The notes beneath the pieces are model-generated. The model was not told the DNA's origin. It saw only the letters and a program-made list of their open reading frames with translations, and ran no database searches. From positions 868,001-932,000 of the forward strand of contig NC_016818.1 in NCBI RefSeq assembly GCF_000241955.1: a stretch of DNA of 64,000 bases, written 5' to 3'. The position numbers and the translations under genes were made by a program. This DNA is from Rahnella aquatilis CIP 78.65 = ATCC 33071. GTDB lineage: Bacteria; Pseudomonadota; Gammaproteobacteria; Enterobacterales; Enterobacteriaceae. Positions 22,665 to 60,499 of the stretch are shown here, piece by piece (positions within the stretch are counted from its first letter, which is position 1; the number at the start of each line of letters is the position of its first letter).

Positions 22665-24105
22665 TCACACTGAAACTCATTACCCTGAAGCGAATCTGAT
22701 GACTCTGCAAAAAACACGTTTAATGGTGTTCCGTCTTGCCCCGCTGGCGCTGGCCTTACTGGTCAGCGCCTGTGCCGTCGGCCCTGATTACCAGCGGCCG
22801 GATGTGGCTATGCCAACGGCCTTTAAAGAAGCCAAAGGCTGGACGGCCGCGATCCCGAAAGATAATCAGGCCAAAGGCGACTGGTGGGCGGTGTATCAGG
22901 ATCCTGAGCTGTCGTCCCTGCTGACACAGGTGCAGATTTCCAACCAGAACGTTGCGCAGTATGCCGCGCAATACCGTCAGGCGCAGGCACTGGTGACACA
23001 GGCGCGTTCCGATTTGTATCCTTCCGTGGATGCGACCGTCGGCAGTACGCGCAATGGCACATCCACCTCCACCACCAACAGCCAGTCCGCACAATTGAGT
23101 GCAAGCTGGGAACTGGATTTGTGGGGCAAACTGCGCCGCACGGCAGAAGAGCAGGATGCCAGCGCGCAGGCCAGCAAGGCCGATCTGGCCGATGCCACGC
23201 TTAGTGCGCAATCCGAACTGGCGCAGGATTATTTTCAGCTACGGGTGATGGATCAGCAAATCGCGTTGTATAAGCAAAGCATCGACGCCTATCAGCGTTA
23301 TCTGACGGTGATTGAGAACCAGTATGCCGGTGGCAGCACCTCGCGTGCCACACTGGCGCAGGCGCAAACTCAGTTGGAAAGCACCAAAGCGTCGGCGCTG
23401 GATCTGCAATGGCAGCGCGCCCAGCTTGAGCATGCCATCGCCGTGCTGATCGGCAAACCACCGGCACAGTTCAGCCTCGCGGCACGTGACGTAAAACTCA
23501 ACCTGCCTGCGATGCCGGATGCGATTCCGTCGCAACTGTTGCAGCGCCGTCCTGATATCGCCGCTGCTGAGCGCACCATGGCCTCAGCCAATGCCGCCGT
23601 CGGTGTCGCGACCGCCGCGTACTATCCTGATCTGACCTTAAGCGCCAGCGGCGGCTTTGCCAGCTCGGCCTTCCACAACCTGTTCTCGCTGCCCAACCGT
23701 GTCTGGTCTTTAGGCCCGGAACTCAGCCAGACGGTACTGGATTTCGGTTCCACCCGTGGCAAAGTGGCACAGGCCGAAGCCGCGTATGACGCCGACGTCG
23801 CCAGCTATCGCCAGAGCGTGTTAACCGCGATGCAGGAAGTGGAAGATTATCTGGTCGAACTGCACACGCTGGACACCGAACTGGTCGCCCGTCAGAACGC
23901 CGCCGATGCCGCCAAAGAATCCGCCCGCGTGACCTACAACCAGTATCAGGCCGGGATGATCGACTATCTCGACGTCGCCACGACCGAAAACACCAGCCTG
24001 ACGCAACAGCAAAGCGTCCTGTCACTGCTCAGCACCCAGATGGTCACCAGCGTCAAGCTGATCGCCGCACTGGGCGGGGGATGGAACGGGGATGTGGGGA
24101 AATAA
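22657..24105 (+). CDS. Outer-membrane efflux channel (OprM/NodT family) of the mdtABC operon
   Basis: This lipoprotein channel of about 482 residues completes the tripartite pump. The signal ends LALALLVSACAVGPDYQRP, with Cys the lipid-attachment site. The two OEP repeats are present: SASWELDLWGKLRRTAEEQ in the first half and a PDIAAAERTMASANAAVGVA segment in the second. The ATG at 22657 has GGAGG about ten bases upstream and overlaps mdtC. An ATG at 22699 is an alternative and gives a shorter leader. E. coli has mdtD-baeSR here instead. The layout resembles the MuxABC-OpmB operon of Pseudomonas. Confidence 0.88.
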   Translation: MTDHTETHYPEANLMTLQKTRLMVFRLAPLALALLVSACAVGPDYQRPDVAMPTAFKEAKGWTAAIPKDNQAKGDWWAVYQDPELSSLLTQVQISNQNVAQYAAQYRQAQALVTQARSDLYPSVDATVGSTRNGTSTSTTNSQSAQLSASWELDLWGKLRRTAEEQDASAQASKADLADATLSAQSELAQDYFQLRVMDQQIALYKQSIDAYQRYLTVIENQYAGGSTSRATLAQAQTQLESTKASALDLQWQRAQLEHAIAVLIGKPPAQFSLAARDVKLNLPAMPDAIPSQLLQRRPDIAAAERTMASANAAVGVATAAYYPDLTLSASGGFASSAFHNLFSLPNRVWSLGPELSQTVLDFGSTRGKVAQAEAAYDADVASYRQSVLTAMQEVEDYLVELHTLDTELVARQNAADAAKESARVTYNQYQAGMIDYLDVATTENTSLTQQQSVLSLLSTQMVTSVKLIAALGGGWNGDVGK

Positions 24106-24292
24106 GAGAGGGTGAATTATCTCTGCACTAAGGGCACATGAAAATGTCTTTGGTGTAGAGATCGTTATTCATTTCAGTTTCAGCGCGAATGTTGCCATTC
24201 ATCTTTAAAAATAATATTACGTGCACAATACTTCCAGGTACTCGCTTCATAACGAAGTAAGATAGTTTTCATATGCGTTTTAACTCATTTTT

Positions 24293-24475
24293 TTATTTGT
24301 ATTTATCAAATTTTGATGTAAGTTTCGCAAAAATGAGAATCCAGATGATTACCGATGCCGCGCCTATCAACACGCCATACGAGGGAAAGATATAGATACA
24401 AAGCAGCCATGATGAAATAATAACAATAGGAAATAAAATGTCTGATAATAATAAAGATATTAAGCTTTTAAACAT
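24293..24475 (-). CDS. Small two-helix membrane protein (immunity-like)
   Basis: This 60-residue protein consists of two membrane helices (about 7-30 and 33-50) and a short basic tail. Its ATG overlaps the stop codon of the remnant effector at 24468-24683 by eight bases (ATGTTTAA), so the two were co-translated. A similar 62-residue two-helix protein follows the second effector copy at 25848-26036. Position and architecture suggest an immunity protein against a membrane-acting effector. No homologue was recognised. Confidence 0.55.
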   Translation of the reverse strand: MFKSLISLLLSDILFPIVIISSWLLCIYIFPSYGVLIGAASVIIWILIFAKLTSKFDKYK

Positions 24476-24683
24476 TATATTTGTCCCTTAACTCTTCATA
24501 AGCCTCATCTAAATTACGCAGCATTTTAGCCCTTACTTTCTTTATTACATCCTCTAATGCAGGTTCAATAAAATAATAAAAAATTTCTAATTCAGCGGTG
24601 TATAAGATTCCAGGCGTTTGGTAAGATTTAAATAGCACCACAGCCATCAGGATTATACAAGGGTAATTTCTGATTATGTGAGG
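24468..24683 (-). pseudogene. C-terminal remnant of a second effector copy
   Basis: A minus-strand frame, open only to a stop at 24684, reads YTAELEIFYYFIEPALEDVI near its middle. This matches YAQELEMMYFLIEPVFERAG in the effector at 25169-25845. The N-terminal two thirds are missing and there is no start signal. The remnant ends in the immunity-like gene, which it overlaps. It is evidence that two effector/immunity pairs once lay here in opposite orientation. Confidence 0.7.
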
Positions 24684-25168
24684 CTAGTAACGGCTATAAA
24701 TTTTCCTTAGTGAGTGACGGTTGATATCGACTACTTACGAGCGTAAATACTGGAGTGGCGCGCTAAATTTGGCCGTCTGAAGAGAGGTGATTTAATCGCC
24801 TAATTAGTAATAAATTTCTGAAAATTCCATTTTTAAAGGTTCTCCAATAGATTGTGAAAACATATGGGCATAACGTAATGGCTCTTTTTTAAATGGACTC
24901 AGCGGGTTTCATGCGCTACATAAGCCGAACTGTTGCCCGTCAGCCACTGGATTGATTTTCCGGTAAATGAGTATCGAACCGCTTTTCTACCACGCCAGGC
25001 ATCACATCCTGTACCGTGCTGCTGTCGTAACTAAAATTAGCGTTAGTGTTAGACATATACCCAAACCTATCTCTTAAGTTAAGAGACTTCTACTGTCTGG
25101 CTTTTCGTGGGGCCCACTCAATGGTAAATCGATCAGCATGGACTTAGTACCTTACGCAAGGAACGATT
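24684..25168. other. Noncoding or decayed stretch
   Basis: No intact gene is seen. The minus-strand frame at 24940-25056 is described separately. The rest shows scattered stops in all frames and looks like degraded coding sequence between the two effector copies. Confidence 0.4.
24940..25056 (-). pseudogene. Possible N-terminal gene remnant
   Basis: A 38-codon minus-strand frame begins MSNTNANFSYDSSTVQDVMP and ends at a TGA. Reading on in a shifted frame gives WLTGNSSAYVAHETR before another stop. This pattern fits a frameshifted and truncated gene start. The family was not recognised. Confidence 0.35.
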
Positions 25169-25845
25169 ATGTACGGTAACGATGAAATTATTAGTCATTT
25201 ACAGGCGAATAAAATTCTTGCACTAAAGCTAGATCACGCTGTAACTGCTGTCGGTCAGCAGGTCGCAAATCAAGTTGAAACATTAGGGAAGGGTGCTACC
25301 AGGCTGTTGTATTATACGTCCTGTTTTACCGATGAATATAACGATGTTTGCCAAAAACAAAAGACGGAAGATCTGCGCTTCAGGAACGGTGTCATTCGAA
25401 TTATCCAGAATGGTGATGTTGTCTATAATATGCTTCATATCTACTTTGAAGAAATATTTAAATACAAAACCAATGACCAATTAGAGTATATCAAAAAACA
25501 GCTCATGGCTGTGAATGTTCATATCGCCGCCAGCTCACTTACAGGGGCAGGATATGCTTTAGCGGCCGCATTGGATTGAGTCTAAGTGTGCAACTCAGCT
25601 CTCTTACGGGGCGTGCAGCTGGTACGGTTGCCGGTGTAGTGACTACGTATGGCTTGGTTCAGAAAGCGGTGGATAGTGCCCATCGTCTATCCGTTCGATA
25701 TCCCGCCTATTACGCAGCCCTTTATGCGCAAGAGCTGGAAATGATGTATTTCCTTATTGAGCCAGTGTTCGAACGCGCGGGTGCACTTGAAGTGCAATGG
25801 TCTGATTCCAACATCGCAAGTATCATTACTCGAATGATTCGATAA
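25169..25845 (+). pseudogene. Frameshifted candidate type VI effector (membrane-acting)
   Basis: Two frames (25169-25579, 136 residues; 25576-25845, 89 residues from a TTG) read as one protein of about 225 residues split by a one-base change near 25565-25575. Restoring the base gives a continuous hydrophobic Gly/Ala/Ser stretch (SSLTGAGYALAAAL then GLSLSVQLSSLTGRAAG). The C-terminus matches the remnant at 24468-24683. A two-helix immunity-like gene and hcp follow. Size and setting recall the pore-forming effector Ssp6 of Serratia marcescens, but homology is not shown. There is no slippery heptamer for programmed frameshifting. AAGGAA precedes the ATG. The alternatives are a sequencing error or two coupled genes. 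Confidence 0.6.
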
Positions 25846-25847
25846 CC

Positions 25848-26036
25848 ATGATTAAATATCTAAAGAAATTTCTACTGTGGCAACTAGCGTTTTTATCATC
25901 ACTGTACGGGCCTGTGGTTCTCACGATTATTTTCGCACTATTTCAGGGTTATTTTTTTCCTGATAGTCCCGTCTGGCCGATAGGCGTATTCGCCATAGTT
26001 ATGATTGTTATTTTTATACGTTACTGTAAATGGTGA
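25848..26036 (+). CDS. Small two-helix membrane protein (candidate immunity)
   Basis: The product is 62 residues. A basic N-terminus (MIKYLKKFLL) is followed by two membrane helices separated by FPDSPVWP. It starts two bases after the effector stop, so it is co-transcribed with it. A small hydrophobic neighbour right behind a membrane-acting effector is the usual form of a type VI immunity protein. Its paralogue-like counterpart is the 60-residue protein at 24293-24475. Homology between these two was not established by eye beyond size and layout. Confidence 0.55.
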   Translation: MIKYLKKFLLWQLAFLSSLYGPVVLTIIFALFQGYFFPDSPVWPIGVFAIVMIVIFIRYCKW

Positions 26037-50816: not shown

Positions 50817-50913
50817 TGACCAGTTTTGCGGAAAAGACCGGTGGCTGCAAGGATGCTGATCGCAACTTTTTGATGTAAGCGCGATGTAACGGGAAAAGAT
50901 CGTGCAGCTTTTA

Positions 50914-50996: not shown

Positions 50997-51917
50997 CTAC
51001 ACCTTTCCTTCTTCCTTAATCCACTGCATAAAATCATCGATAAACACTCTTGTTTTAAGCGGCAGCAGTTTATTGGGCAGGGTGATGGCGTAGGTGTTGC
51101 GCGGCAGGGGATTCTCCACCCGCCATTCAGGCAAGACGCGACGCAATTTACCATTAGCGATATAGCGGTTGGCGATGAAAGTAGGGATCAGCGCAATGCC
51201 GACACCTTGCAAGATGGCATCAATCATGGCGTCACTGTTATTGATCATCAGCCGTGGAACCAGCGTCACGGTCTCCATGATTTCATTGTGCCAGAAACGC
51301 CATGGACCGCGAAATTGCCGTTCATCGGGGAAAAAAATATTGTGTTTGATGAGCCCTGCCGGGAAATCCGGCAGCGCTTCGTCGTAATCCGCAGCACAAA
51401 CCAATACGTAATCAATAGGCATCAGGGCACGGGCGACCATATTCTCCGGCGGGCTTTCGGTGACGCGCAGTGCCAGATCGTAAGCGTCCTGCGTCAGATT
51501 CGTGACCCGATCGGTCAGCGACAGCTCGACGTTTATTTCGGGATAGCGGCGTAAAAATCCGGGCAAAAAGGGTGTGAGAAGGATCTTACCGAGTGTGTTA
51601 GGCGCGGTGATGCGCAAAACACCCTGAGGAGTATCACTGAAGCTATCAGCCCGGGAGAAAAGTGTCTGCGTAGCCGATAGCACCGTCAGCGCCTGCTGGT
51701 AAATTTCCAGTCCGACCTCGGTTATGGCGACAGAGCGGGTCGAGCGGGTAAATAGCACCACATTGAGGCGCTTCTCCAGCCGGTCAATCATCCTGCTCAC
51801 CGAAGAGGGTGCCAGCGAAGTCTCCCGTCCTGCCGAAGAAAAACTCCCTTTTTCAACCACCTGGATAAAAACGGACAAACTGGGAAGTAGTTCGGCTAAC
51901 TCATTTGTGCTTTTCAC
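50997..51917 (-). CDS. LysR-type regulator divergent from the hil-like cluster
   Basis: This regulator of about 306 residues has an N-terminal winged helix (LPSLSVFIQVVEKGSFSSAGRETSLAPSSVSRMIDRLEKRLNVVLFTRSTRSVAITEVG) and a C-terminal inducer domain. The GTG start at 51917 (AGAGC upstream) is preferred over the ATG at 51962, which has no Shine-Dalgarno. It faces away from the cluster 52037-58103 with about 120 bases between them, the usual setting for control by a LysR activator. The ligand is unknown. Confidence 0.85.
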   Translation of the reverse strand: MKSTNELAELLPSLSVFIQVVEKGSFSSAGRETSLAPSSVSRMIDRLEKRLNVVLFTRSTRSVAITEVGLEIYQQALTVLSATQTLFSRADSFSDTPQGVLRITAPNTLGKILLTPFLPGFLRRYPEINVELSLTDRVTNLTQDAYDLALRVTESPPENMVARALMPIDYVLVCAADYDEALPDFPAGLIKHNIFFPDERQFRGPWRFWHNEIMETVTLVPRLMINNSDAMIDAILQGVGIALIPTFIANRYIANGKLRRVLPEWRVENPLPRNTYAITLPNKLLPLKTRVFIDDFMQWIKEEGKV

Positions 51918-52036
51918 GCATAGCTCTTTTGTTTCTGGAATATCTATCCAAATTATCATCAAGCCGTATGATGTTCAACAGAGGCAATCTCTGGTGAGAA
52001 TTGGCCATAATAGTCAATTTATTTAATGGGTTAGCT

Positions 52037-53008
52037 ATGTCAGACCAAACGGTTATTGAACGGATACGCCAGCACGATGTGCTGAATGTTGGAGTTAGTC
52101 TGGGTTTTAAAGGTTTGTCGTTTCGTAATGTATTGCACAATTGCTGGGAAGGGTTCGACATTGATTTAGCCCGTGCGGTAGCGGTGGCAGTATTAGGTGA
52201 TGTCGGAAAAATTCATTATATGCCATTGCAGTCCGGTGACCGGTTTCGGGCGCTGCGTGACGGAGTGATTGACCTGGGGTCATTTAATTCCAGCATTACC
52301 TTCCAGCGTGAAGCAGAGTCAGACGTCAGTTTTGTTCATCCGATGCTGTTTGATGGCGAAGTGCTGATGACGCCGGCGAGTAATTTGCTCGAACCCGTTG
52401 AACAGGCATTGTATACCCGCGAGCGCCGGATAGCGGCCATGCGCGGATCCACCACCGAAGAGAACCTGAAACGTTACTTTGGACATTTAAATCTCTCCTG
52501 CGAGATCCGACTGTTTGATTCGCCTACTCAGGCCCGTCAGGCTTATCAGCAAGGTGAATGCAATATCTACTGTCTCGATTCCTATTTGCTGGCCGGCGAA
52601 CGTGCTCAGCTGCAAGACAAAGAAGCGCATATTATCTTGCAGGATCGCATCTCGCTGGAAGCCATGTCACCTGCTGTGTCCTCTCATGACACGCAGTGGC
52701 TGAAAGCAGTGACCTGGATCATGCGTACGCTGATAGAAGCGGAAAACTTACAGGTCACCAGCAAAAACATTCTTGAAATGAGTCAGGAGGCGACGGGTTA
52801 CCTGCACACCTTCCTTTACCCGTCAGAGCAGCATTGTAAAAATCTGGGGCTGCGTCCTGATTTTATCCGCGCGATCATTCATCAGGTGGGCAATTACGGG
52901 GAAATATTCCAGCGTAATTTGGGCAAATACTCAGAGCTTAACCAGCCGCGCCGGGATAATAATTTATGGTCACAAGGGGGAATGCTGTATTCGCCTTTAT
53001 TCATCTGA
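52037..53008 (+). CDS. Cytosolic AapJ-like amino-acid-binding protein homologue
   Basis: This protein of about 323 residues aligns with general amino-acid ABC substrate-binding proteins (AapJ/BztA). It has LNVGVSLGFKGLSF, then WEGFDIDLARAVAVAVLGDVGKIHYMPLQSGDRFRALRDGVIDLGSFNSSITFQRE and MRGSTTEENLKRYFG. It has no signal peptide and no ABC permease neighbour. The conserved DxCRA Cys of the transporter group is replaced (DLARA). A cytoplasmic binding or enzymatic role (as in cyclohexadienyl dehydratases derived from this fold) is more likely than transport. First gene of the cluster. Confidence 0.75.
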   Translation: MSDQTVIERIRQHDVLNVGVSLGFKGLSFRNVLHNCWEGFDIDLARAVAVAVLGDVGKIHYMPLQSGDRFRALRDGVIDLGSFNSSITFQREAESDVSFVHPMLFDGEVLMTPASNLLEPVEQALYTRERRIAAMRGSTTEENLKRYFGHLNLSCEIRLFDSPTQARQAYQQGECNIYCLDSYLLAGERAQLQDKEAHIILQDRISLEAMSPAVSSHDTQWLKAVTWIMRTLIEAENLQVTSKNILEMSQEATGYLHTFLYPSEQHCKNLGLRPDFIRAIIHQVGNYGEIFQRNLGKYSELNQPRRDNNLWSQGGMLYSPLFI

Positions 53009-53085
53009 TATCTGATTTATACAGACCCTTTTAATAACAATTTTTTGTGCGTTTATCATTTTAATATTTCTTTGGCAGGAACATC

Positions 53086-53979
53086 ATGAGTGAGTTATTG
53101 GCAGAAAAACAGCAAGAGATAGTATTGTCCGGTTCAGTAAAAAATAATTTCGGTTATTTAGAGACGCAGCCTGATAGTGTCGATTTTAGCATTATCAAGA
53201 ATATTATTCTGCACGGTCATCATCAGGGTAATGTTCTGTATATCATCCGTAATTTTGCGAATAAAAAAATCTGTCAGGATGTGGCTGAAAACTTTAATCA
53301 GATGGTCAATCGCAACGGGGGCGGAAACCGCGCCGATGACGGTTTTGTTCTGACCAATCAGATTGGCGCCACGCAGTTTTCACGTAACGGTGAAAACTAT
53401 ATGGCGGAAGTGAACCGGGTCAACGCCAGTGTGGCAGAACTGATGTCCGTCGCGGACAGTTATGCCACCGAATCGCTGTTCCTCAACCGCACGCTGGAAG
53501 ATTTATTCCTTGATGAAGGCATCCATTTTGGTCCGGCGCGTTATAAGAATTCTTACGCCTGTTTTGCCACGTTCCGTCGCTGGCTGGATAACGGTGTCAT
53601 GTCGCTGATGCCGCATGAAGACCGCGCCCAGCTTAAGTTTGCGCAGCAGGATGATTTTGAAATTGCCGATGCCATGACGGTGACCGCGTTTAATGTGTGC
53701 CTGGAAGCGGCGCAGGGCGGTGGCGAATTGAAAATGTGGAACCTGGATCCGGATGAGCCATGCCGGGCCCGCTTTGGCGTGACGGACACCGGTTATCCCT
53801 ATCCTCCGCACCTGTTGCAGGGCGTGGAATCACTCTCCGTGCGGCTGAATGCCGGGGATATTTACTTCATGAACGCCTGCCATCTGCACGGCGTCAGCAG
53901 CGTGAGTCAGGGAAGTCGCCTGACGGCCGGGCGCTTTATTGGCAGACTGAATAATAGCAAAGTGGTGTACTGGACCTAG
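53086..53979 (+). CDS. HilA-like Fe(II)/2-oxoglutarate dioxygenase (PF13640 type)
   Basis: This 297-residue oxygenase has the double-stranded beta-helix metal triad His177-x-Asp179 (in LMPHEDRAQ) and a distal His near 266-268 (NACHLHGVSS). An Arg follows (LTAGRF) for 2-oxoglutarate. It stands directly before a PF10014-type dioxygenase gene. Tandem genes of these two families define the hil operon of Pantoea ananatis, where HilA hydroxylates L-isoleucine at the 4'-carbon. The substrate here is inferred from this arrangement. AGGAACATC precedes the ATG. Confidence 0.8.
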   Translation: MSELLAEKQQEIVLSGSVKNNFGYLETQPDSVDFSIIKNIILHGHHQGNVLYIIRNFANKKICQDVAENFNQMVNRNGGGNRADDGFVLTNQIGATQFSRNGENYMAEVNRVNASVAELMSVADSYATESLFLNRTLEDLFLDEGIHFGPARYKNSYACFATFRRWLDNGVMSLMPHEDRAQLKFAQQDDFEIADAMTVTAFNVCLEAAQGGGELKMWNLDPDEPCRARFGVTDTGYPYPPHLLQGVESLSVRLNAGDIYFMNACHLHGVSSVSQGSRLTAGRFIGRLNNSKVVYWT

Positions 53980-54041
53980 CGGAAGTGAATTAATCATGGT
54001 GATTCATTCTCTCTTTGTCCTGAATTAATAACGAGTCTTAT

Positions 54042-54773
54042 ATGGAATATGTTAATCATCTTGCGGCCGGGGGATATGCATTTATTCCCGGCAGTTATTA
54101 TCAAACGTTGCCTGATGTAAATTACGCGAATAAAGATAATTTTCTTTCTGAACTTGAACAGTTAAAACTGGCGTATGAACAACTGACGCTGGACCCTTAT
54201 TCTGCGGGAAATCGCTGGCGCGGTTATGCGCAATGCCGTCGCAATCCGCAGGGTGAACTCAGTTTTGGTCATTTTACGGAATATAAGCAAACTAAAAAAT
54301 ACAATCCGGATACCGGCGGTATTGTTCGCCATTATCCTTTGCTGCCCGAAAATATTACCGCTAACCGCCTGATGCAGGCGATTTTGCAGGATGACATCGC
54401 TTTTGTTGAAGCCTACGGGCGTATCGGGCCAATGGAAGAACTGAGTGTCGGCATTCATTTATTCCGCTATGAAGCGCAGTGCGATGCGCCCGCGTACAGC
54501 TCACCCGTCTGGCTGCATAAAGATGATGAGGATGTGGTGTTTGTTCACCTGATCCATGCCTCCGCCAACATGCTGGGGGGCGACAATCTGATTGCCCCGA
54601 ACCCTAAAAATATTGAGCGGGTGCTGCGCCTCGAGGCGCTATTCGACACGCTGGTGGTCAATCACGACAAATACCATGCTGTGACACCCATCGGCTGCCG
54701 CCAGCCGGGGGAGACGGCACTGCGTGACATCATTCTGGTAACGTTCCAGCGCACGATGAGGGAAGCAGCATGA
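54042..54773 (+). CDS. HilB/IDO-like Fe(II)/2-oxoglutarate dioxygenase (PF10014)
   Basis: This 243-residue member of the isoleucine-dioxygenase/BsmA family has the start NHLAAGGYAFIPGSY, NRWRGYAQCRRNP, and the metal motif His159-x-Asp161 in PVWLHKDDEDVVFVHLIH. A distal His (about 212, in HDKYHAVTPI) is followed by ALRDIILVTF with the 2-oxoglutarate Arg. In Pantoea, HilB hydroxylates the HilA product at C-4. Here it follows the HilA-like gene by 62 bases and overlaps the SDR gene, so a cascade is likely. Confidence 0.85.
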   Translation: MEYVNHLAAGGYAFIPGSYYQTLPDVNYANKDNFLSELEQLKLAYEQLTLDPYSAGNRWRGYAQCRRNPQGELSFGHFTEYKQTKKYNPDTGGIVRHYPLLPENITANRLMQAILQDDIAFVEAYGRIGPMEELSVGIHLFRYEAQCDAPAYSSPVWLHKDDEDVVFVHLIHASANMLGGDNLIAPNPKNIERVLRLEALFDTLVVNHDKYHAVTPIGCRQPGETALRDIILVTFQRTMREAA

Positions 54774-55501
54774 GCCTGAAACATAAAGCATTTATCACGG
54801 GTGCCTCCAGTGGTATCGGTCAGTCGATGGTGGCGGCCTATCTGGCTGCCGGTTATGCGGTAGAGGGCATTGACTGTTCCCCGTCCGTTTTCGCCAATGA
54901 ACCTGACTACGTTCATCACCAGCTGGATATTACCGATTCAGTGCGCCTGGATGGCGTGTTTGAAGCAGCAGAATACGCCAGCGATAACAATGTCTTAATA
55001 AACTGCGCCGGTACACGTGAAATCTGCCGTATCGATGAATTATCCCTCTCACTGTGGGAACGTGTTTTTGCCGTCAACGTGACCGCCAGTTTTGTTGCCG
55101 GACGTGCATTCTGTCAGCAACTGGTTCGCCATAACCTGCCGGGCAATGCCGTCAATATCGCCTCGGTTTCCGGCCTGATGGGCGAGCCTGACCGCACCGC
55201 CTATGTCTCTTCAAAGCACGCCGTGATCGGCCTGACGAAACAGCTGGCGCTGGAATACGGCAAACACCACATCCGGGTGAATGCCATTGCGCCCGGCGTT
55301 ATCCGCACACCGCTCACTGAACCCTACTATGACAACCCGGCACAGATGGAGAAGATCCAGCGGGGTCAGTTCCTGCCTGTGCTGGGCGAAACGCAGGATG
55401 TGGCACAAGCGGCAATGTATCTCACCTCTTCTGATGCGCGATTTGTGACCGGCTCCACGCTGGTGATCGATGGCGGCTGGACGATTGGTAAAGACCTTTA
55501 A
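54770..55501 (+). CDS. Short-chain dehydrogenase/reductase of the hil-like cluster
   Basis: The product is 243 residues. The NAD(P)-binding TGxxxGIG loop is in ITGASSGIGQSMV and the NCAG motif follows later. The catalytic Ser/Tyr/Lys set is in NIASVSGLMGEPDRTAYVSSKHAVIG. The C-terminus reads FVTGSTLVIDGGWT. It starts with ATGA overlap on the HilB-like gene, so it is co-translated. It may oxidise a hydroxyl group made by the dioxygenases, which is an inference from order. Confidence 0.88.
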   Translation: MSLKHKAFITGASSGIGQSMVAAYLAAGYAVEGIDCSPSVFANEPDYVHHQLDITDSVRLDGVFEAAEYASDNNVLINCAGTREICRIDELSLSLWERVFAVNVTASFVAGRAFCQQLVRHNLPGNAVNIASVSGLMGEPDRTAYVSSKHAVIGLTKQLALEYGKHHIRVNAIAPGVIRTPLTEPYYDNPAQMEKIQRGQFLPVLGETQDVAQAAMYLTSSDARFVTGSTLVIDGGWTIGKDL

Positions 55502-55548
55502 TCCGATGGCCGGCATAACGGCCACAACTGACTTGCAGGAGTTTTATT

Positions 55549-56805
55549 ATGAACAACACCTATATTTTGATCCTTGGCGGCGAGTTTGCTTTACGTGAGC
55601 GTGTGCTGGCGGGGGCGTTACGTGCCTCAGGAGGAATGCGGGTACTGACAATGGCAAAAAACCGTACCACGCCGACAATCAAATTTTTCGACGGCTTTTT
55701 ACCGGGGGATGTCGCCGATGCAGAAGCTGTGCTGCGTGCTGTGCAGGCTCATCAACAGGAAACCGGTGAAACCCCTGCGGCGGTGATCCCGATGAATGAT
55801 TTCACCGTGCGCGCCGCCAGCCTGCTGACGGAGCATTACCCGCTTTACGGCAATGATTGCCAGACAATCACTAACTGCCGTGACAAATTTGTGATGAAGC
55901 AGATCCTGCAAGCTGCGGGTCTGCCGGTGCCGCGTTTCGCTGCGTTTCGCACCCTCACTGAACTGAAAAAACTGATCGCGGAGTTCGGTCTGCCGGTGGT
56001 GATTAAACCCCGTGAACTGGCGGGTAGCCTGGGCGTGTTGAAAATCAGTCACGAACAGGAAATCGAAGAAGTGTTCGCCCGCTGCGTTACCGATGTGATT
56101 TCACTCAATGGTGAATCCTTTGCGCCGGAAGACTTGTTCCAGGTCGAGGAGTATATCCCGGCGTGGCAGGAAGTCAGCGTTGAGGTGATCAATCAGGGCG
56201 ACTATCACCGGGCGATGGCTGTTACCGACAAATACCTGGGTGAAGAGCCGAATTTTGTTGAGGTGGGCCACAGTATGCCGTCGCTGCACAGCGACAATCA
56301 GGCACTGCGTGACATCGCTGAACGGGCCTGTCATGCACTGGGGATCCGTTACGGGGTGGCGCACTTTGAAGCACGTATTACGCCTGCCGGGGAGATCAAA
56401 ATCATCGAAGTGGGGGCGCGTACCGGCGGCGACACCATCATGGATCTGGTGGAAAGAACCTACGGTATCAACCCGTATGAACTGCACGTACTCAGCCATC
56501 TGAACAAACTTAAACCGCTGCCGGAGACGCTCAAACCTCGCGGCCTGAGCGCCGTCGCTTTTATTAAAGCCGACGTTGGCGTGATTGAGAAAATCACCTT
56601 GCCCGCCAGCCTGCCAGCTCACGTGGTGAATATGCAGGTTACCGCTAAGCCGCTGGATCTGTCGAAAAAGCTGGTGTCGTGGAAAACCCGTGAAGGTTCT
56701 ATCGAGTATTTCTGGCCACAGCGTGCCGCAGAACAGGGTTTTGACGAGCACTTAACGATTGCCGATCAATACGCCCGATCGCTGTTTACCCTTCGTCAGG
56801 TCTGA
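55549..56805 (+). CDS. ATP-grasp carboxylate-amine ligase
   Basis: This 418-residue ATP-grasp enzyme is of the type that joins amino acids (BacD-like L-amino-acid ligases). The ATP-grasp core is visible: VVIKPRELAGSLGVLKI (about 146-162), FQVEEYIPAWQEVSVEV and GVAHFEARITPAGEIKIIEVGARTGGD (metal/ATP ligands). In the cluster it would couple a hydroxylated amino acid to a second amino acid or acid. AGGAGTTTTATT precedes the ATG. Confidence 0.85.
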   Translation: MNNTYILILGGEFALRERVLAGALRASGGMRVLTMAKNRTTPTIKFFDGFLPGDVADAEAVLRAVQAHQQETGETPAAVIPMNDFTVRAASLLTEHYPLYGNDCQTITNCRDKFVMKQILQAAGLPVPRFAAFRTLTELKKLIAEFGLPVVIKPRELAGSLGVLKISHEQEIEEVFARCVTDVISLNGESFAPEDLFQVEEYIPAWQEVSVEVINQGDYHRAMAVTDKYLGEEPNFVEVGHSMPSLHSDNQALRDIAERACHALGIRYGVAHFEARITPAGEIKIIEVGARTGGDTIMDLVERTYGINPYELHVLSHLNKLKPLPETLKPRGLSAVAFIKADVGVIEKITLPASLPAHVVNMQVTAKPLDLSKKLVSWKTREGSIEYFWPQRAAEQGFDEHLTIADQYARSLFTLRQV

Positions 56806-56864
56806 TATCACCCGAGCCACCTCATGCGGGGTGGCTTCCGAACTTTTTTAAGGAAAGCAATGAT

Positions 56865-58103
56865 ATGAACAGTGATCGTTTTGGATTAAAACGTTTCGTC
56901 TTTTCCCGCTTTGCCGGGTCACTGTGCGATCAGTTTTTGCTGTTTGCCGTGCCGCTGGCCATTTTGAAAGCGACCGGTTCTTTAACCTTTTCCTCGCTGG
57001 CATTCGTGATTGAATGGCTGCCGCGCATTCTGTTTTTCCCACTGTCAGGTTTTCTGGCTGACCGTATCAGGCCCCGTTTTATCTTCTTTAACGTGGAAGC
57101 CGGACGCTGCGTGTTAATGGTGGTCGCTTTCCTGACCCTGACCTTTCATCCCGGCGCCACATTCCCGGTGCTGGCGGTCATGATGGCGCTGCTGTCGGTG
57201 GCCTATGTCCTGAACTTTGTTGCCACCGAAGCTTTGTTACCGCGCCATATCCCCGCAGAAACTCTGCCGAAAGCCCATTCCATGTTACAGGGTGTCGACC
57301 AGACCACGCAGGTTCTGGGCCCTGCGCTGGCAGTGGCAATTTCCGTTTATGGTGGCGTCGGGGCGATTTTAGCCTGTGCAGCCGTGCTGTTTGCTGTCTC
57401 TGCCATCAATTATCTGTTCCTCAAAACTCATGACCTTGAAGTTACTGAGAAGATGAGTCTACGTTCAATTGTGCAATCAAACATTACGGCGATTCAGGTG
57501 CTCAGGCAGAATAAAATCCTGCTGCATCTGTGTGCGCTGACCTGGGTAGTGAATCTGGTTTACGGTGCGGCGCTGGTGGTGAGTGCGGCGGTGATCCTCA
57601 AAGAGTTTCATCTGCCTGAGAGTTACTTTGGCGTATTACAGACCTCGGCAGCGCTGGTCACCATCATTACGTTTTTCTTTGTGCCGCGAATTGCCAGACG
57701 CTTTGGGCTTTCCACGCTGGGAACCCTGTCGTTTTGCGGCATGATATTGTCAGGTGCGCTGATGTCGCTTTCACTCGATTATGCGATGTATCTGGCAGGT
57801 TACGCATTACTGATGGCTTTTGACGGTGCATTCAGCGTCTACCTGCGTACCTTACGCAGCCAGATTATTCCGCAGAAACATCTGGGAAAAACCATGGGGC
57901 TGATTGGCCTGATGAACATGTGTTCGGTCCCCGTTAGCGGCCTGGCGGTGACAGTGCTGGCAGGAAGCTTTATGCCGTTGCAAATCATCGGCATCATACT
58001 GATTTTTGCGCTGATATTAGGACTGATGCTGATCGTCATTGGCCGCCGTGCCTTCGGCTACCACAGCTGGCTGCCGCCGGTCATCGCGCAGCCGCAGGCC
58101 TGA
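56865..58103 (+). CDS. MFS exporter of the hil-like cluster
   Basis: This 412-residue protein has about twelve membrane helices. Features include FSRFAGSLCDQFLLFAVPLAILKATGS near the start, PLSGFLADRIRPRFIFF in the loop between helices 2 and 3, and a second-half repeat. It resembles BacE-type and enterobactin-exporter-like MFS proteins of antibiotic clusters. As the last gene of the operon it probably exports the product and gives self-protection. AAGGAAAGC precedes the ATG. Confidence 0.85.
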   Translation: MNSDRFGLKRFVFSRFAGSLCDQFLLFAVPLAILKATGSLTFSSLAFVIEWLPRILFFPLSGFLADRIRPRFIFFNVEAGRCVLMVVAFLTLTFHPGATFPVLAVMMALLSVAYVLNFVATEALLPRHIPAETLPKAHSMLQGVDQTTQVLGPALAVAISVYGGVGAILACAAVLFAVSAINYLFLKTHDLEVTEKMSLRSIVQSNITAIQVLRQNKILLHLCALTWVVNLVYGAALVVSAAVILKEFHLPESYFGVLQTSAALVTIITFFFVPRIARRFGLSTLGTLSFCGMILSGALMSLSLDYAMYLAGYALLMAFDGAFSVYLRTLRSQIIPQKHLGKTMGLIGLMNMCSVPVSGLAVTVLAGSFMPLQIIGIILIFALILGLMLIVIGRRAFGYHSWLPPVIAQPQA

Positions 58104-58130: not shown

Positions 58131-58154
58131 TAATGGGGAGAAAATCCCCTTTTC
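58131..58154 (+). terminator. Short terminator after the hil-like cluster
   Basis: GGGGA-GAAAA-TCCCC followed by TTTT lies about 30 bases after the MFS stop. The stem is only five base pairs, so termination may be partial. Confidence 0.55.
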
Positions 58155-58240: not shown

Positions 58241-60499
58241 ATGTCGATAAAACGCTATCCGCAACTGGCCCACTGGGGCGCTTATACCGCCGTGGTGGAA
58301 GATGGCCGGTTGATCCGCTGCGAGCCTTATCAGGCCGATGCCGATCCTTCCCCTTTACTCGATTCCATTGCGCCGCTGGTCTATTCCGACAAACGTATCC
58401 GCAAACCGGCAGTGCGCCGTTCGTGGCTGAAACACCGCGAAAACAGCGATCGCTCGCTGCGTGGCCGTGAAGATTTCGTCGAAGTGGACTGGGATCAGGC
58501 GCTGGATCTGGTGGCTGAAGAGAATAAACGCGTGCGTGATCGTTACGGCGCTTCCGGTATTTTTAACGGCTCTTACGGCTGGTCATCCGCCGGACGTTTG
58601 CATCATGCCCGTTCTCTGGTGCGCCGTTTTTATTTCACCGGCGGCGGCGGGGTAGATCAGCAGGGCAACTACAGTTGGGGCTCGGCGCAATTTTTTCTGC
58701 CGTACGTTATCGGCACTTTTACCCCGCTGACCGGACGTGTGACCTCGTGGCCAAGTGTGGTCGAGCACGCTGACATTCTGGTGGCGTTTGGTGGGCTGGC
58801 GCTGAAAAATGCACAAGTGGCGTCCGGCGGCGCGGTGGAACATACCCTGAAACCGGCGCTGGAACAGCTGGCGAAGAAAGGCACCCGCGTCATTAACATC
58901 AGTCCGATGCGCGACGACTGTCCGGAATTCGTCAATGCAGAGTGGATCCCGATCCGCCCGAATACCGACGCCGCGCTGATGATGGCCGTCGCCTATGAAA
59001 TTCAGCGCCGCGATGCGCAGGACGACGCGTTTCTTGCCAGCCACTGTGTCGGTTATCCGCAGCTTGCCGCCTATCTGCGTGGCGACACGGACGGCATCCC
59101 GAAAACCCCTGACTGGGCGAGCGACATCACCGGCGTACCGGCTGAACGTATTGCGCGTCTGGCTGACGACCTGATCGGGGTGCGCAGCTTTATTACCTGT
59201 TCTTATTCGGTGCAGCGCGCCCACCGCGGTGAGCAACCTTACTGGATGATGATCGCCCTCTCTGCCATGCTCGGGCAGGTCGGTTTGCCGGGCGGCGGTT
59301 TCTCTTTCGGTCACGGTTCGATGAACAGCGTGGGTAATCCGCGTTATGACACGCCGGGGCCAGCCGTCAGTGCCGGGCCGAACCCGTCTGGTTTGTCGAT
59401 CCCCGTGGCGCGCATCAGCGACATGCTGCTCAATCCGGGCCAGCCGTATGAATTCCAGGGCGAGACGCTCACTTACCCCGATATTCATCTGGTGCACTGG
59501 GCGGGCGGCAATCCGTTCCATCATCATCAGCAACTGAACCGTCTGGTGGAAGGCTGGCAGAAGCCGGATACCGTGATTGTGCAGGATAACGTCTGGACGC
59601 CAGCCGCGCAGATGGCCGATATCGTGCTGCCTGCGACCACGTCGCTGGAACGTAACGATATCGGCGGATCGTCCCGTGACCGCTTCGTGCTGGCGATGCA
59701 TCAGGCCATTGCGCCACAACACCAGGCGCGTAACGATTTTGATATTTTCGCAGACATTGCGGATCGTCTCGGTTACCGCGAGCAGTTCACTCAGGGGCGT
59801 AATGAGGATCAGTGGCTGCGCCATATTTACCGTCAGTGCGGCGAAGCGCAAAAAGGTACCGGCGTGGAATGGCCGGATTTTGAAACCTTCTGGGAGCGCG
59901 GTTTTGTTGAACTGCCGGTGCCGGAAAAAGATTACGTGTTCTTTGAGGCATTTCGTAAAAGCCCGCGCGCTAATCCGCTGGGGACGCACAGTGGCAAAAT
60001 CGAACTGTTCTCCGAAACCATCGCCGGTTACGGCTATGAAGATTTCGCACCGCATCCTGAATGGCAGCCGCCGGTGGAATGGCTGGGGGCAGAAAGTGCG
60101 AAACAGTGGCCGCTGCACCTGATTTCCATTCAGCCGAAAGATCGTCTGCACAGCCAGCTTGATCAGTCGCCGCTGGCGCAGGCGAACAAAACGGCCGGTA
60201 AGGAAACCCTGTTCATGCATCCGGAAGATGCCCTCAGCCGTCAGCTTAAGGACGGCGACCGGGTGAAAGTGCACAATGCGCGCGGCAGTTGTCTGGCGGG
60301 CGTGTCGCTGAACGACGGGATCACGCGTGGTGTGGTGCTGATGTCCACCGGCGCCTGGTTTGATCCGGGCTTTGGCGGCCAGTGGCAGGAAACCGAGCAG
60401 GCGGGAAACCCGAATGTGCTGACGCTGGATATCGGTACGTCGCGCCTGACGCAGGGGCCGAATGCCATGAGTTGCTTGGTCGAGGTGGAAATTATTTAG
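58241..60499 (+). CDS. Molybdopterin S/N-oxide reductase (BisC/TorZ-like)
   Basis: This 752-residue molybdoenzyme is related to biotin sulfoxide reductase BisC. The serine molybdenum ligand lies in NGSYGWSSAGRLHHA. MGD-binding segments follow (GQVGLPGGGFSFGHGSMNSVGNP; WAGGNPFHHHQQLNRL; LPATTSLERNDIGG). There is no N-terminal [4Fe-4S] motif or Tat signal, so it acts in the cytoplasm, as BisC does. The substrate (biotin sulfoxide, methionine sulfoxide or other) is not fixed by sequence. It has a terminator at 60519-60547. Confidence 0.85.
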   Translation: MSIKRYPQLAHWGAYTAVVEDGRLIRCEPYQADADPSPLLDSIAPLVYSDKRIRKPAVRRSWLKHRENSDRSLRGREDFVEVDWDQALDLVAEENKRVRDRYGASGIFNGSYGWSSAGRLHHARSLVRRFYFTGGGGVDQQGNYSWGSAQFFLPYVIGTFTPLTGRVTSWPSVVEHADILVAFGGLALKNAQVASGGAVEHTLKPALEQLAKKGTRVINISPMRDDCPEFVNAEWIPIRPNTDAALMMAVAYEIQRRDAQDDAFLASHCVGYPQLAAYLRGDTDGIPKTPDWASDITGVPAERIARLADDLIGVRSFITCSYSVQRAHRGEQPYWMMIALSAMLGQVGLPGGGFSFGHGSMNSVGNPRYDTPGPAVSAGPNPSGLSIPVARISDMLLNPGQPYEFQGETLTYPDIHLVHWAGGNPFHHHQQLNRLVEGWQKPDTVIVQDNVWTPAAQMADIVLPATTSLERNDIGGSSRDRFVLAMHQAIAPQHQARNDFDIFADIADRLGYREQFTQGRNEDQWLRHIYRQCGEAQKGTGVEWPDFETFWERGFVELPVPEKDYVFFEAFRKSPRANPLGTHSGKIELFSETIAGYGYEDFAPHPEWQPPVEWLGAESAKQWPLHLISIQPKDRLHSQLDQSPLAQANKTAGKETLFMHPEDALSRQLKDGDRVKVHNARGSCLAGVSLNDGITRGVVLMSTGAWFDPGFGGQWQETEQAGNPNVLTLDIGTSRLTQGPNAMSCLVEVEII

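What the first reader, a model, noticed from the sequence alone, without database searches (positions are those of the whole stretch)
50997..58103. Hil-type dioxygenase cluster with ligase and exporter: probable small-molecule biosynthesis operon
Seen: a divergent LysR gene and a plus-strand unit made of a signal-less AapJ-like protein, tandem PF13640-type and PF10014-type Fe/2OG dioxygenases, an SDR, an ATP-grasp ligase and an MFS exporter. Several genes overlap or lie close together. Known: tandem hilA/hilB dioxygenases of these families hydroxylate L-isoleucine in Pantoea ananatis, and a dipeptide antibiotic has been proposed as the product. Inference: the operon makes a hydroxylated amino acid, oxidised by the SDR, joined to another amino acid by the ATP-grasp enzyme and exported by the MFS protein.
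Basis: partly seen in the sequence, partly recalled or inferred. Interest (0 to 1): 0.8.

Follow-up and report, generated by a model that had tools for sequence, protein, structure and literature searches.

The report
Known isoleucine-hydroxylating antibiotic-type operon
This is the already described hil operon of plant-associated bacteria, which hydroxylates isoleucine and probably turns it into a small exported antibiotic; new here are relatives that dropped the producing genes but kept the exporter, and a binding protein that seems to have moved from outside the cell to inside.

Summary
Window 50997-58103 holds hilR(-), hilP, hilA, hilB, hilC, hilD, hilE(+). HilA and HilB exceed NCBI's equivalog cut-offs. 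Gene order is the same in six related loci of Rahnella, Enterobacillus and Pantoea ananatis. I found no report of the product.

Two additions. (1) In 3 of 14 genomes of the genus, hilP-hilD are deleted in place, while hilR, the promoter region and an intact hilE remain. The three form one clade by flanking genes, and hilE shows strong purifying selection (dN/dS 0.05-0.09). A Pantoea plasmid also carries hilR-hilE without hilP-hilD beside it. This resembles resistant non-producers and supports a toxic product with HilE as export/immunity. (2) HilP, published as extracellular, has no signal peptide and lacks the presumed disulfide pairs of periplasmic AapJ in 40 of 40 sequences, but keeps the amino-acid-binding Arg and Asp. 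It is probably a cytosolic binding protein or enzyme.

The parts
50997..51962 (-). hilR, LysR-type regulator, divergent
   Evidence: PF00126/PF03466; 74% identical in the Enterobacillus and P. ananatis loci
51967..51979 (+). candidate HilR-operator block TATGATGTTCAAC in the hilR-hilP intergenic region
   Evidence: exact in 9 of 11 aligned intergenic regions, one mismatch in one, absent from L068 (place checked); binding not tested
52037..53008 (+). hilP, signal-less AapJ-type amino-acid-binding protein (323 aa), probably cytosolic
   Evidence: PF00497; no leader; presumed disulfide Cys pairs lost; predicted fold matches 4z9n, TM 0.93
53086..53979 (+). hilA, L-isoleucine 4'-dioxygenase (hydroxylase; H177, D179, H268)
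   Evidence: NF041274 582 bits against cut-off 500; ligands invariant in 9 of 9 aligned
54042..54773 (+). hilB, 4'-hydroxyisoleucine 4-dioxygenase (H159, D161, H212)
   Evidence: NF042428 446 bits against cut-off 350; ligands invariant in 4 of 4 aligned
54770..55501 (+). hilC, short-chain dehydrogenase with Y145xxxK, proposed to oxidise the hydroxylated isoleucine
   Evidence: PF13561/PF00106; motif
55549..56805 (+). hilD, ATP-grasp L-amino-acid-ligase-like protein
   Evidence: PF13535; best solved relatives BL00235 and BacD
56865..58103 (+). hilE, MFS exporter, proposed self-immunity
   Evidence: PF07690, TIGR00900 below its cut-off; kept with hilR but without hilP-hilD in 3 of 14 genus genomes
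58135..58149 (+). terminator-like hairpin and T run after hilE
   Evidence: consensus match only, number of such matches near chance level

Best explanation
It is a Rahnella copy of the hil operon. HilA hydroxylates L-isoleucine at C4' and HilB at C4 (shown in P. ananatis, inferred here by orthology). HilC then oxidises the diol, most likely at C4 as in its published relative AMKP reductase (inferred). HilD joins the product to another amino acid, which masks it (inferred from the BacD/BL00235 relation). HilE exports it and protects the producer (inferred, now with genomic support from regulator-exporter remnants that keep hilE under purifying selection without hilP-hilD). HilR controls the unit from the divergent promoter (inferred). 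HilP works inside the cell as a binder, or less likely a converter, of a pathway amino acid, and is not the extracellular sensor that was proposed (inferred).
For: HilA/HilB equivalog scores over cut-off. Same seven-gene order in 6 of 7 related loci. Published activities of the P. ananatis proteins (PMC3684760). Intact Fe ligands with Asp in place, so hydroxylase rather than halogenase (the halogenase rule is recalled). HilD's best solved relatives are dipeptide ligases. In-place deletion of hilP-hilD with hilR, promoter and hilE kept in G001, G009, G010; HilB has no match in those genomes; they form one clade by galR+aas (100/100); hilE dN/dS among them 0.047-0.087 against 0.034-0.089 among three full operons, while hilR is looser (0.166-0.190 against 0.014-0.045). 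Pantoea sp. S18 plasmid with hilR-hilE and no hilP, hilA, hilB or hilD match in the 12 kb read on either side of the record's origin. HilP without leader or disulfide pairs.
Against: No product, target or activity is shown for any Rahnella protein. The core variant L068 has hilR, hilP, an EamA exporter, hilA, hilB, hilC and no hilD/hilE match, so a dipeptide is not needed for every member. The hilE gene tree does not recover the remnant clade (G009 sits with G005 at 80/82), so recombination could have refreshed hilE, and part of the dN/dS signal could predate the deletion. hilR looks relaxed in the remnants. HilE could export something else.
Confidence: 0.72

Rival explanations
1. The operon makes a free oxidised or lactonised hydroxy-isoleucine signal (furanone or homoserine-lactone analogue), not an antibiotic.
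For: Second hypothesis of Smirnov et al.. The variant L068 shows no ligase or MFS gene beside the core.
Against: Keeping regulator plus exporter in non-producers is what a toxic product predicts and is not readily predicted for a signal.
Confidence: 0.15
2. HilE is a general exporter kept in the remnants for unrelated reasons, and the remnants are ordinary decay caught midway.
For: MFS exporters are often broad (general knowledge). hilR shows relaxed constraint in the remnants. The hilE tree does not recover the remnant clade.
Against: hilE dN/dS is as low in remnants as in full operons, no stops in 3 of 3; flanks of the three differ by 5.5-6.2%, so the deletion is not very recent if it happened once; a separate hilR-hilE pair lies on a Pantoea plasmid.
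Confidence: 0.2
3. HilP is a moonlighting or still exported receptor that senses an extracellular signal, as published.
For: Family membership PF00497, predicted fold as AapJ.
Against: No leader seen in 42 informative HilP-like proteins, presumed disulfide pairs lost in 40 of 40; no ABC permease or ATPase gene in the operon. Non-classical export is not excluded.
Confidence: 0.08

Closest known systems
[quoted passage not shown] 2013, PMC3684760)
   Same: Carrier list and gene names hilRPABC plus hilD, hilE in the Fig. 1 legend; orthologs 65-79% identical in P. ananatis LMG 2665
   Different: None seen in the operon itself (the figure is not held, only its legend). The regulator-exporter remnants and HilP's cytosolic features were not in the parts that I read (parts 1, 3, 4 of 5)
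Bacilysin operon bacABCDE (compared in the Fig. 5 legend of PMC3684760)
   Same: ATP-grasp dipeptide ligase plus exporter after amino-acid-modifying enzymes
   Different: Starts from isoleucine through two Fe/2OG dioxygenases, not from prephenate; product unknown
IDO operon of Bacillus thuringiensis (AMKP; from PMC3684760)
   Same: PF10014 dioxygenase plus SDR plus exporter acting on isoleucine
   Different: Hydroxylase, reductase and exporter only; its RhtA-type exporter resembles the EamA gene of L068
AapJ periplasmic L-amino-acid-binding protein (4z9n; own genome C1:4396430-4397368)
   Same: Predicted fold and alpha-amino-acid ligands kept in HilP
   Different: AapJ has a leader and four conserved Cys; HilP has no leader and no Cys pair
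Cyclohexadienyl dehydratase (an enzyme evolved from an amino-acid SBP; passages of PMC7683729)
   Same: Precedent for an SBP fold becoming a dehydratase; appears among fold matches

Membership tests
hil operon | core of hilR, hilP, hilA, hilB, hilC | tested here: met
hil operon | tandem HilA and HilB orthologs | tested here: met
   NF041274 and NF042428 over cut-off
hil operon | dihydroxylation of L-isoleucine | not testable with these tools
   shown for P. ananatis in PMC3684760
Fe/2OG hydroxylase (HilA) | HxD...H ligands with Asp present | tested here: met
   H177, D179, H268 invariant in 9 of 9
BacD-type L-amino acid ligase (HilD) | ATP-grasp domain with similarity to known dipeptide ligases | tested here: met
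   PF13535; BL00235 6.6e-19, BacD 4.9e-14
BacD-type L-amino acid ligase (HilD) | NCBIfam equivalog of alanine-anticapsin ligase | tested here: not met
   58.6 bits against cut-off 850: a relative, not BacD itself
BacD-type L-amino acid ligase (HilD) | dipeptide formation | not testable with these tools
   no assay
periplasmic solute-binding protein (HilP) | export signal | tested here: not met
   no leader from the 52037 start; hydropathy and inspection, no dedicated predictor
periplasmic solute-binding protein (HilP) | alpha-amino-acid-binding Arg and Asp | tested here: met
   R91 and D181 invariant in 36 of 36 rows of A1; their role in the pocket is recalled from LAO/GlnBP
cyclohexadienyl-dehydratase-like enzyme (HilP) | catalytic acid residue and activity | not tested
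   residue correspondence was not worked out

The most novel reading that the evidence does not exclude
The hil product is a masked electrophile. HilC oxidises 4,4'-dihydroxyisoleucine at C4; the 4'-hydroxyl is then beta to a ketone and is eliminated, helped or contained by the cytosolic AapJ-derived HilP, giving a 3-methylene-4-oxo amino acid (Michael acceptor). HilD hides it in a dipeptide and HilE exports it. Rahnella and Pantoea populations therefore hold producers, hilR-hilE immunity-only cheaters and sensitive hil-less strains. Signal-less relatives of AapJ would be a recurring intracellular part of amino-acid-antibiotic operons (also in Streptomyces methylaspartate-mutase operons).
Probability: 0.2. 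Interest if true: 0.72.

Novelty: new member of a known kind. Interest (0 to 1): 0.45.

Why it matters
The product of the hil operon was open in 2013 and I found no later answer. The genus now offers three natural states at one chromosomal site (full operon, regulator plus exporter only, nothing), a ready comparison for testing whether the product is an antibiotic and HilE its immunity. HilP, if cytosolic, would be an uptake receptor recruited into biosynthesis.

Tried and rejected
Halogenase reading of HilA (Pfam WelO5 hit): rejected because the metal-binding Asp is present. HilP as a mere truncated AapJ: rejected because the clade is separate (SH-aLRT 99) and has also lost the Cys pairs. hilR-hilE as ancestral two-gene state: rejected because G010 keeps both the 5' end of hilP and the 3' end of hilD at the junction, and G001/G009 keep the hilP 5' end. 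Two independent deletions: not needed, as the left breakpoint is the same and the three are one clade; the right ends differ, so they are not excluded. HilP as a proven enzyme: not concluded; CDT-like structures appear as fold matches but below AapJ.

Led nowhere: HilA/HilB on plasmids gave only distant hits. H21 (Ensifer) is an ordinary-looking ABC operon. Paper searches on Streptomyces methylaspartate operons and on Rahnella non-producers gave nothing relevant by title and abstract. PMC11350110 (Pantoea antibiotic clusters) was searched for six terms; dioxygenase and isoleucine do not occur in its main text. Shared contig lengths as a proxy for co-location: 20 of 43 HilP-like against 0 of 31 AapJ-like hits share a longest-contig length with a HilA or HilE hit. 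Numbers were typed: 43 of 44 HilP-like hits (P0020 has no contig), 31 of 76 AapJ-like hits listed, HilE hits P0121-P0204 (the weaker P0205-P0226 left out); P0077 was mistyped (7125 for 5899), and neither number is in the other lists. This is circumstantial.

Rows dropped: the HilP tree and Cys counts use sequences of 300 residues or more and leave out P0086-P0120; one search listed 120 of 635 hits.
Full report
Observation. The open frames at 50997-58103 are as described. Pfam and NCBIfam give LysR, SBP_bac_3, WelO5-type and PF10014 dioxygenases, SDR, ATP-grasp and MFS. HilA scores 582 bits against NF041274's cut-off 500 and HilB 446 against NF042428's 350. The window lies in a 5.45-Mb genome, G000 C1:868001-932000; the nearest named loci are Rahnella. 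hilB and hilC overlap by 4 bases and the other gaps are 77, 62, 47 and 59 bases.

What it is. The same seven-gene order occurs in L012-L015 (Rahnella), L017 (Enterobacillus tribolii) and L018 (P. ananatis LMG 2665), 6 of 7 loci; L016 is cut at its contig end inside hilB. Smirnov et al. 2013 (PMC3684760; I read parts 1, 3 and 4 of 5) describe this operon, name Rahnella aquatilis CIP 78.65 among its carriers, show that P. ananatis HilA makes 4'-hydroxyisoleucine and HilB 4,4'-dihydroxyisoleucine, and propose a dipeptide antibiotic by analogy with bacilysin, or alternatively a signal. A later paper used both enzymes on isoleucine (passages of PMC8948231). A search for 'dihydroxyisoleucine' found 6 papers, 5 of them listed; judging by titles and abstract starts only the 2013 paper is about this operon. 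Among the 4 papers with at least three of 'hil operon', isoleucine, dioxygenase and Rahnella, only the 2013 paper holds 'hil operon'. I found no report of the product; subscription papers are mostly not in that library.

The family is rare. HilA over the cut-off: 1 of 369 genomes of the class sample (the window's own) and 2 of 394 of the order sample (own and G493). HilB over the cut-off: 7 of 59 genomes, own included, all of the same genus; three more had weak matches only. HilP-like matches at E <= 1e-60: 5 of 392 of the family sample.

Active sites. HilA keeps H177, D179, H268 in 9 of 9 aligned sequences and HilB H159, D161, H212 in 4 of 4. HilC has YxxxK at 145. HilD's best solved relatives are the L-amino-acid ligases BL00235 (6.6e-19) and BacD (4.9e-14), far below the BacD equivalog cut-off.

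Three states of one site in the genus. All 14 genomes searched have galR and aas. In G000, G003, G005 and G008 the two lie about 10.05 kb apart, as in the window. In six (G004, G006, G007, G011, G012, G013) they are only about 2.8 kb apart; in the three of these that were fetched and aligned (G004, G006, G011; L099, L103, L104) the alignment stops at window position 50882-50904 and resumes at 58152 or 58166, so no hil gene is left at the site. G007 and G012 carry hil elsewhere. G002 has hilB-hilE beside aas, but its contig ends inside hilB, so its hilA, hilP and link to galR were not seen; I labelled it 'full'. In G001, G009 and G010 the hilP-hilD stretch is gone, and hilR, its promoter region and a full-length hilE remain (hilE 95-98% identical, no stops). 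The left breakpoint is near codon 9 of hilP in all three. G010 keeps the end of hilD; G001 and G009 lack it. HilB has no match in those three genomes. HilE is present in 10 of 14, HilB in 7 of 14. The galR+aas tree puts the three together at 100/100. hilE dN/dS among them is 0.047, 0.087, 0.063, against 0.034-0.089 among three full operons (window, L012, L014); hilR is 0.166-0.190 among them against 0.014-0.045. So the exporter looks kept under full constraint and the regulator under looser constraint after loss of the biosynthetic genes. Against this, the hilE tree does not recover the three as a clade (G009 with G005 at 80/82, most forks open), so recombination is possible and the dN/dS values need not all date from after the deletion.

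On plasmid NZ_CP142690.1 of Pantoea sp. S18 a HilR homolog (63%) and HilE (69% and 81% in two pieces split by the record's numbering origin) lie divergently. In the 12 kb read on either side of the origin no hilP, hilA, hilB or hilD match was found; the only HilC match is a 27% SDR. Its chromosome and the rest of the plasmid were not searched for hilP-hilD. The HilR alignment includes one in-frame stop, at its 4th codon, upstream of the annotated start at the 11th.

In four Streptomyces-type plasmid loci an SBP without a leader by inspection follows methylaspartate mutase and precedes asd, ask and an oxygenase. The two entered into the tree lie on the AapJ side of the split, so loss of the leader there may be separate; both lack the Cys pairs too.

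Variant. L068 (G981) has hilR, hilP, an EamA exporter, hilA, hilB, hilC (52-54% identical enzymes) and no hilD or hilE match in the 19.5 kb read. This fits a core that makes an amino acid, with either a free-amino-acid exporter or a ligase-plus-MFS module. Eight HilP-like sequences form their own subclade; four share a contig length with a HilE hit and none with a HilA hit, which hints at clusters with another front end.

Regulation. The 13-base block TATGATGTTCAAC between hilR and hilP is exact in 9 of 11 intergenic regions, the three remnants included, has one mismatch in L017 and is absent from L068. Promoter matches in the region are at chance level (7 found, 7.0 expected).

Verdict. The finding is real and largely known. 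Steps shown elsewhere: HilA, HilB. Steps inferred: HilC, HilD, HilE, HilR, HilP. New and testable: the regulator-exporter remnants and the intracellular nature of HilP.

Noticed in passing
P0011, P0239: Salmonella enterica (subsp. salamae by one source's name) has proteins 68% and 67% identical to HilP and HilA.
   Followed up: no
L030, L067, L118, L119: Streptomyces-type plasmids carry an operon of methylaspartate mutase, signal-less SBP, semialdehyde dehydrogenase, aspartate kinase and a 2OG-type oxygenase (plus an EamA/DMT exporter in two), product unknown to me.
   Followed up: partly
window 58241-60499: A bisC-family molybdopterin reductase lies between hil and aas; it is present also at the three aligned sites without hil.
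   Followed up: partly
window 24001-26000: Low-GC stretch (41%; neighbouring 2-kb blocks 60% and 50%).
   Followed up: no
L013, L015: In two Rahnella loci the full hil operon lies away from the galR-aas site, so it has moved or been acquired more than once.
   Followed up: partly
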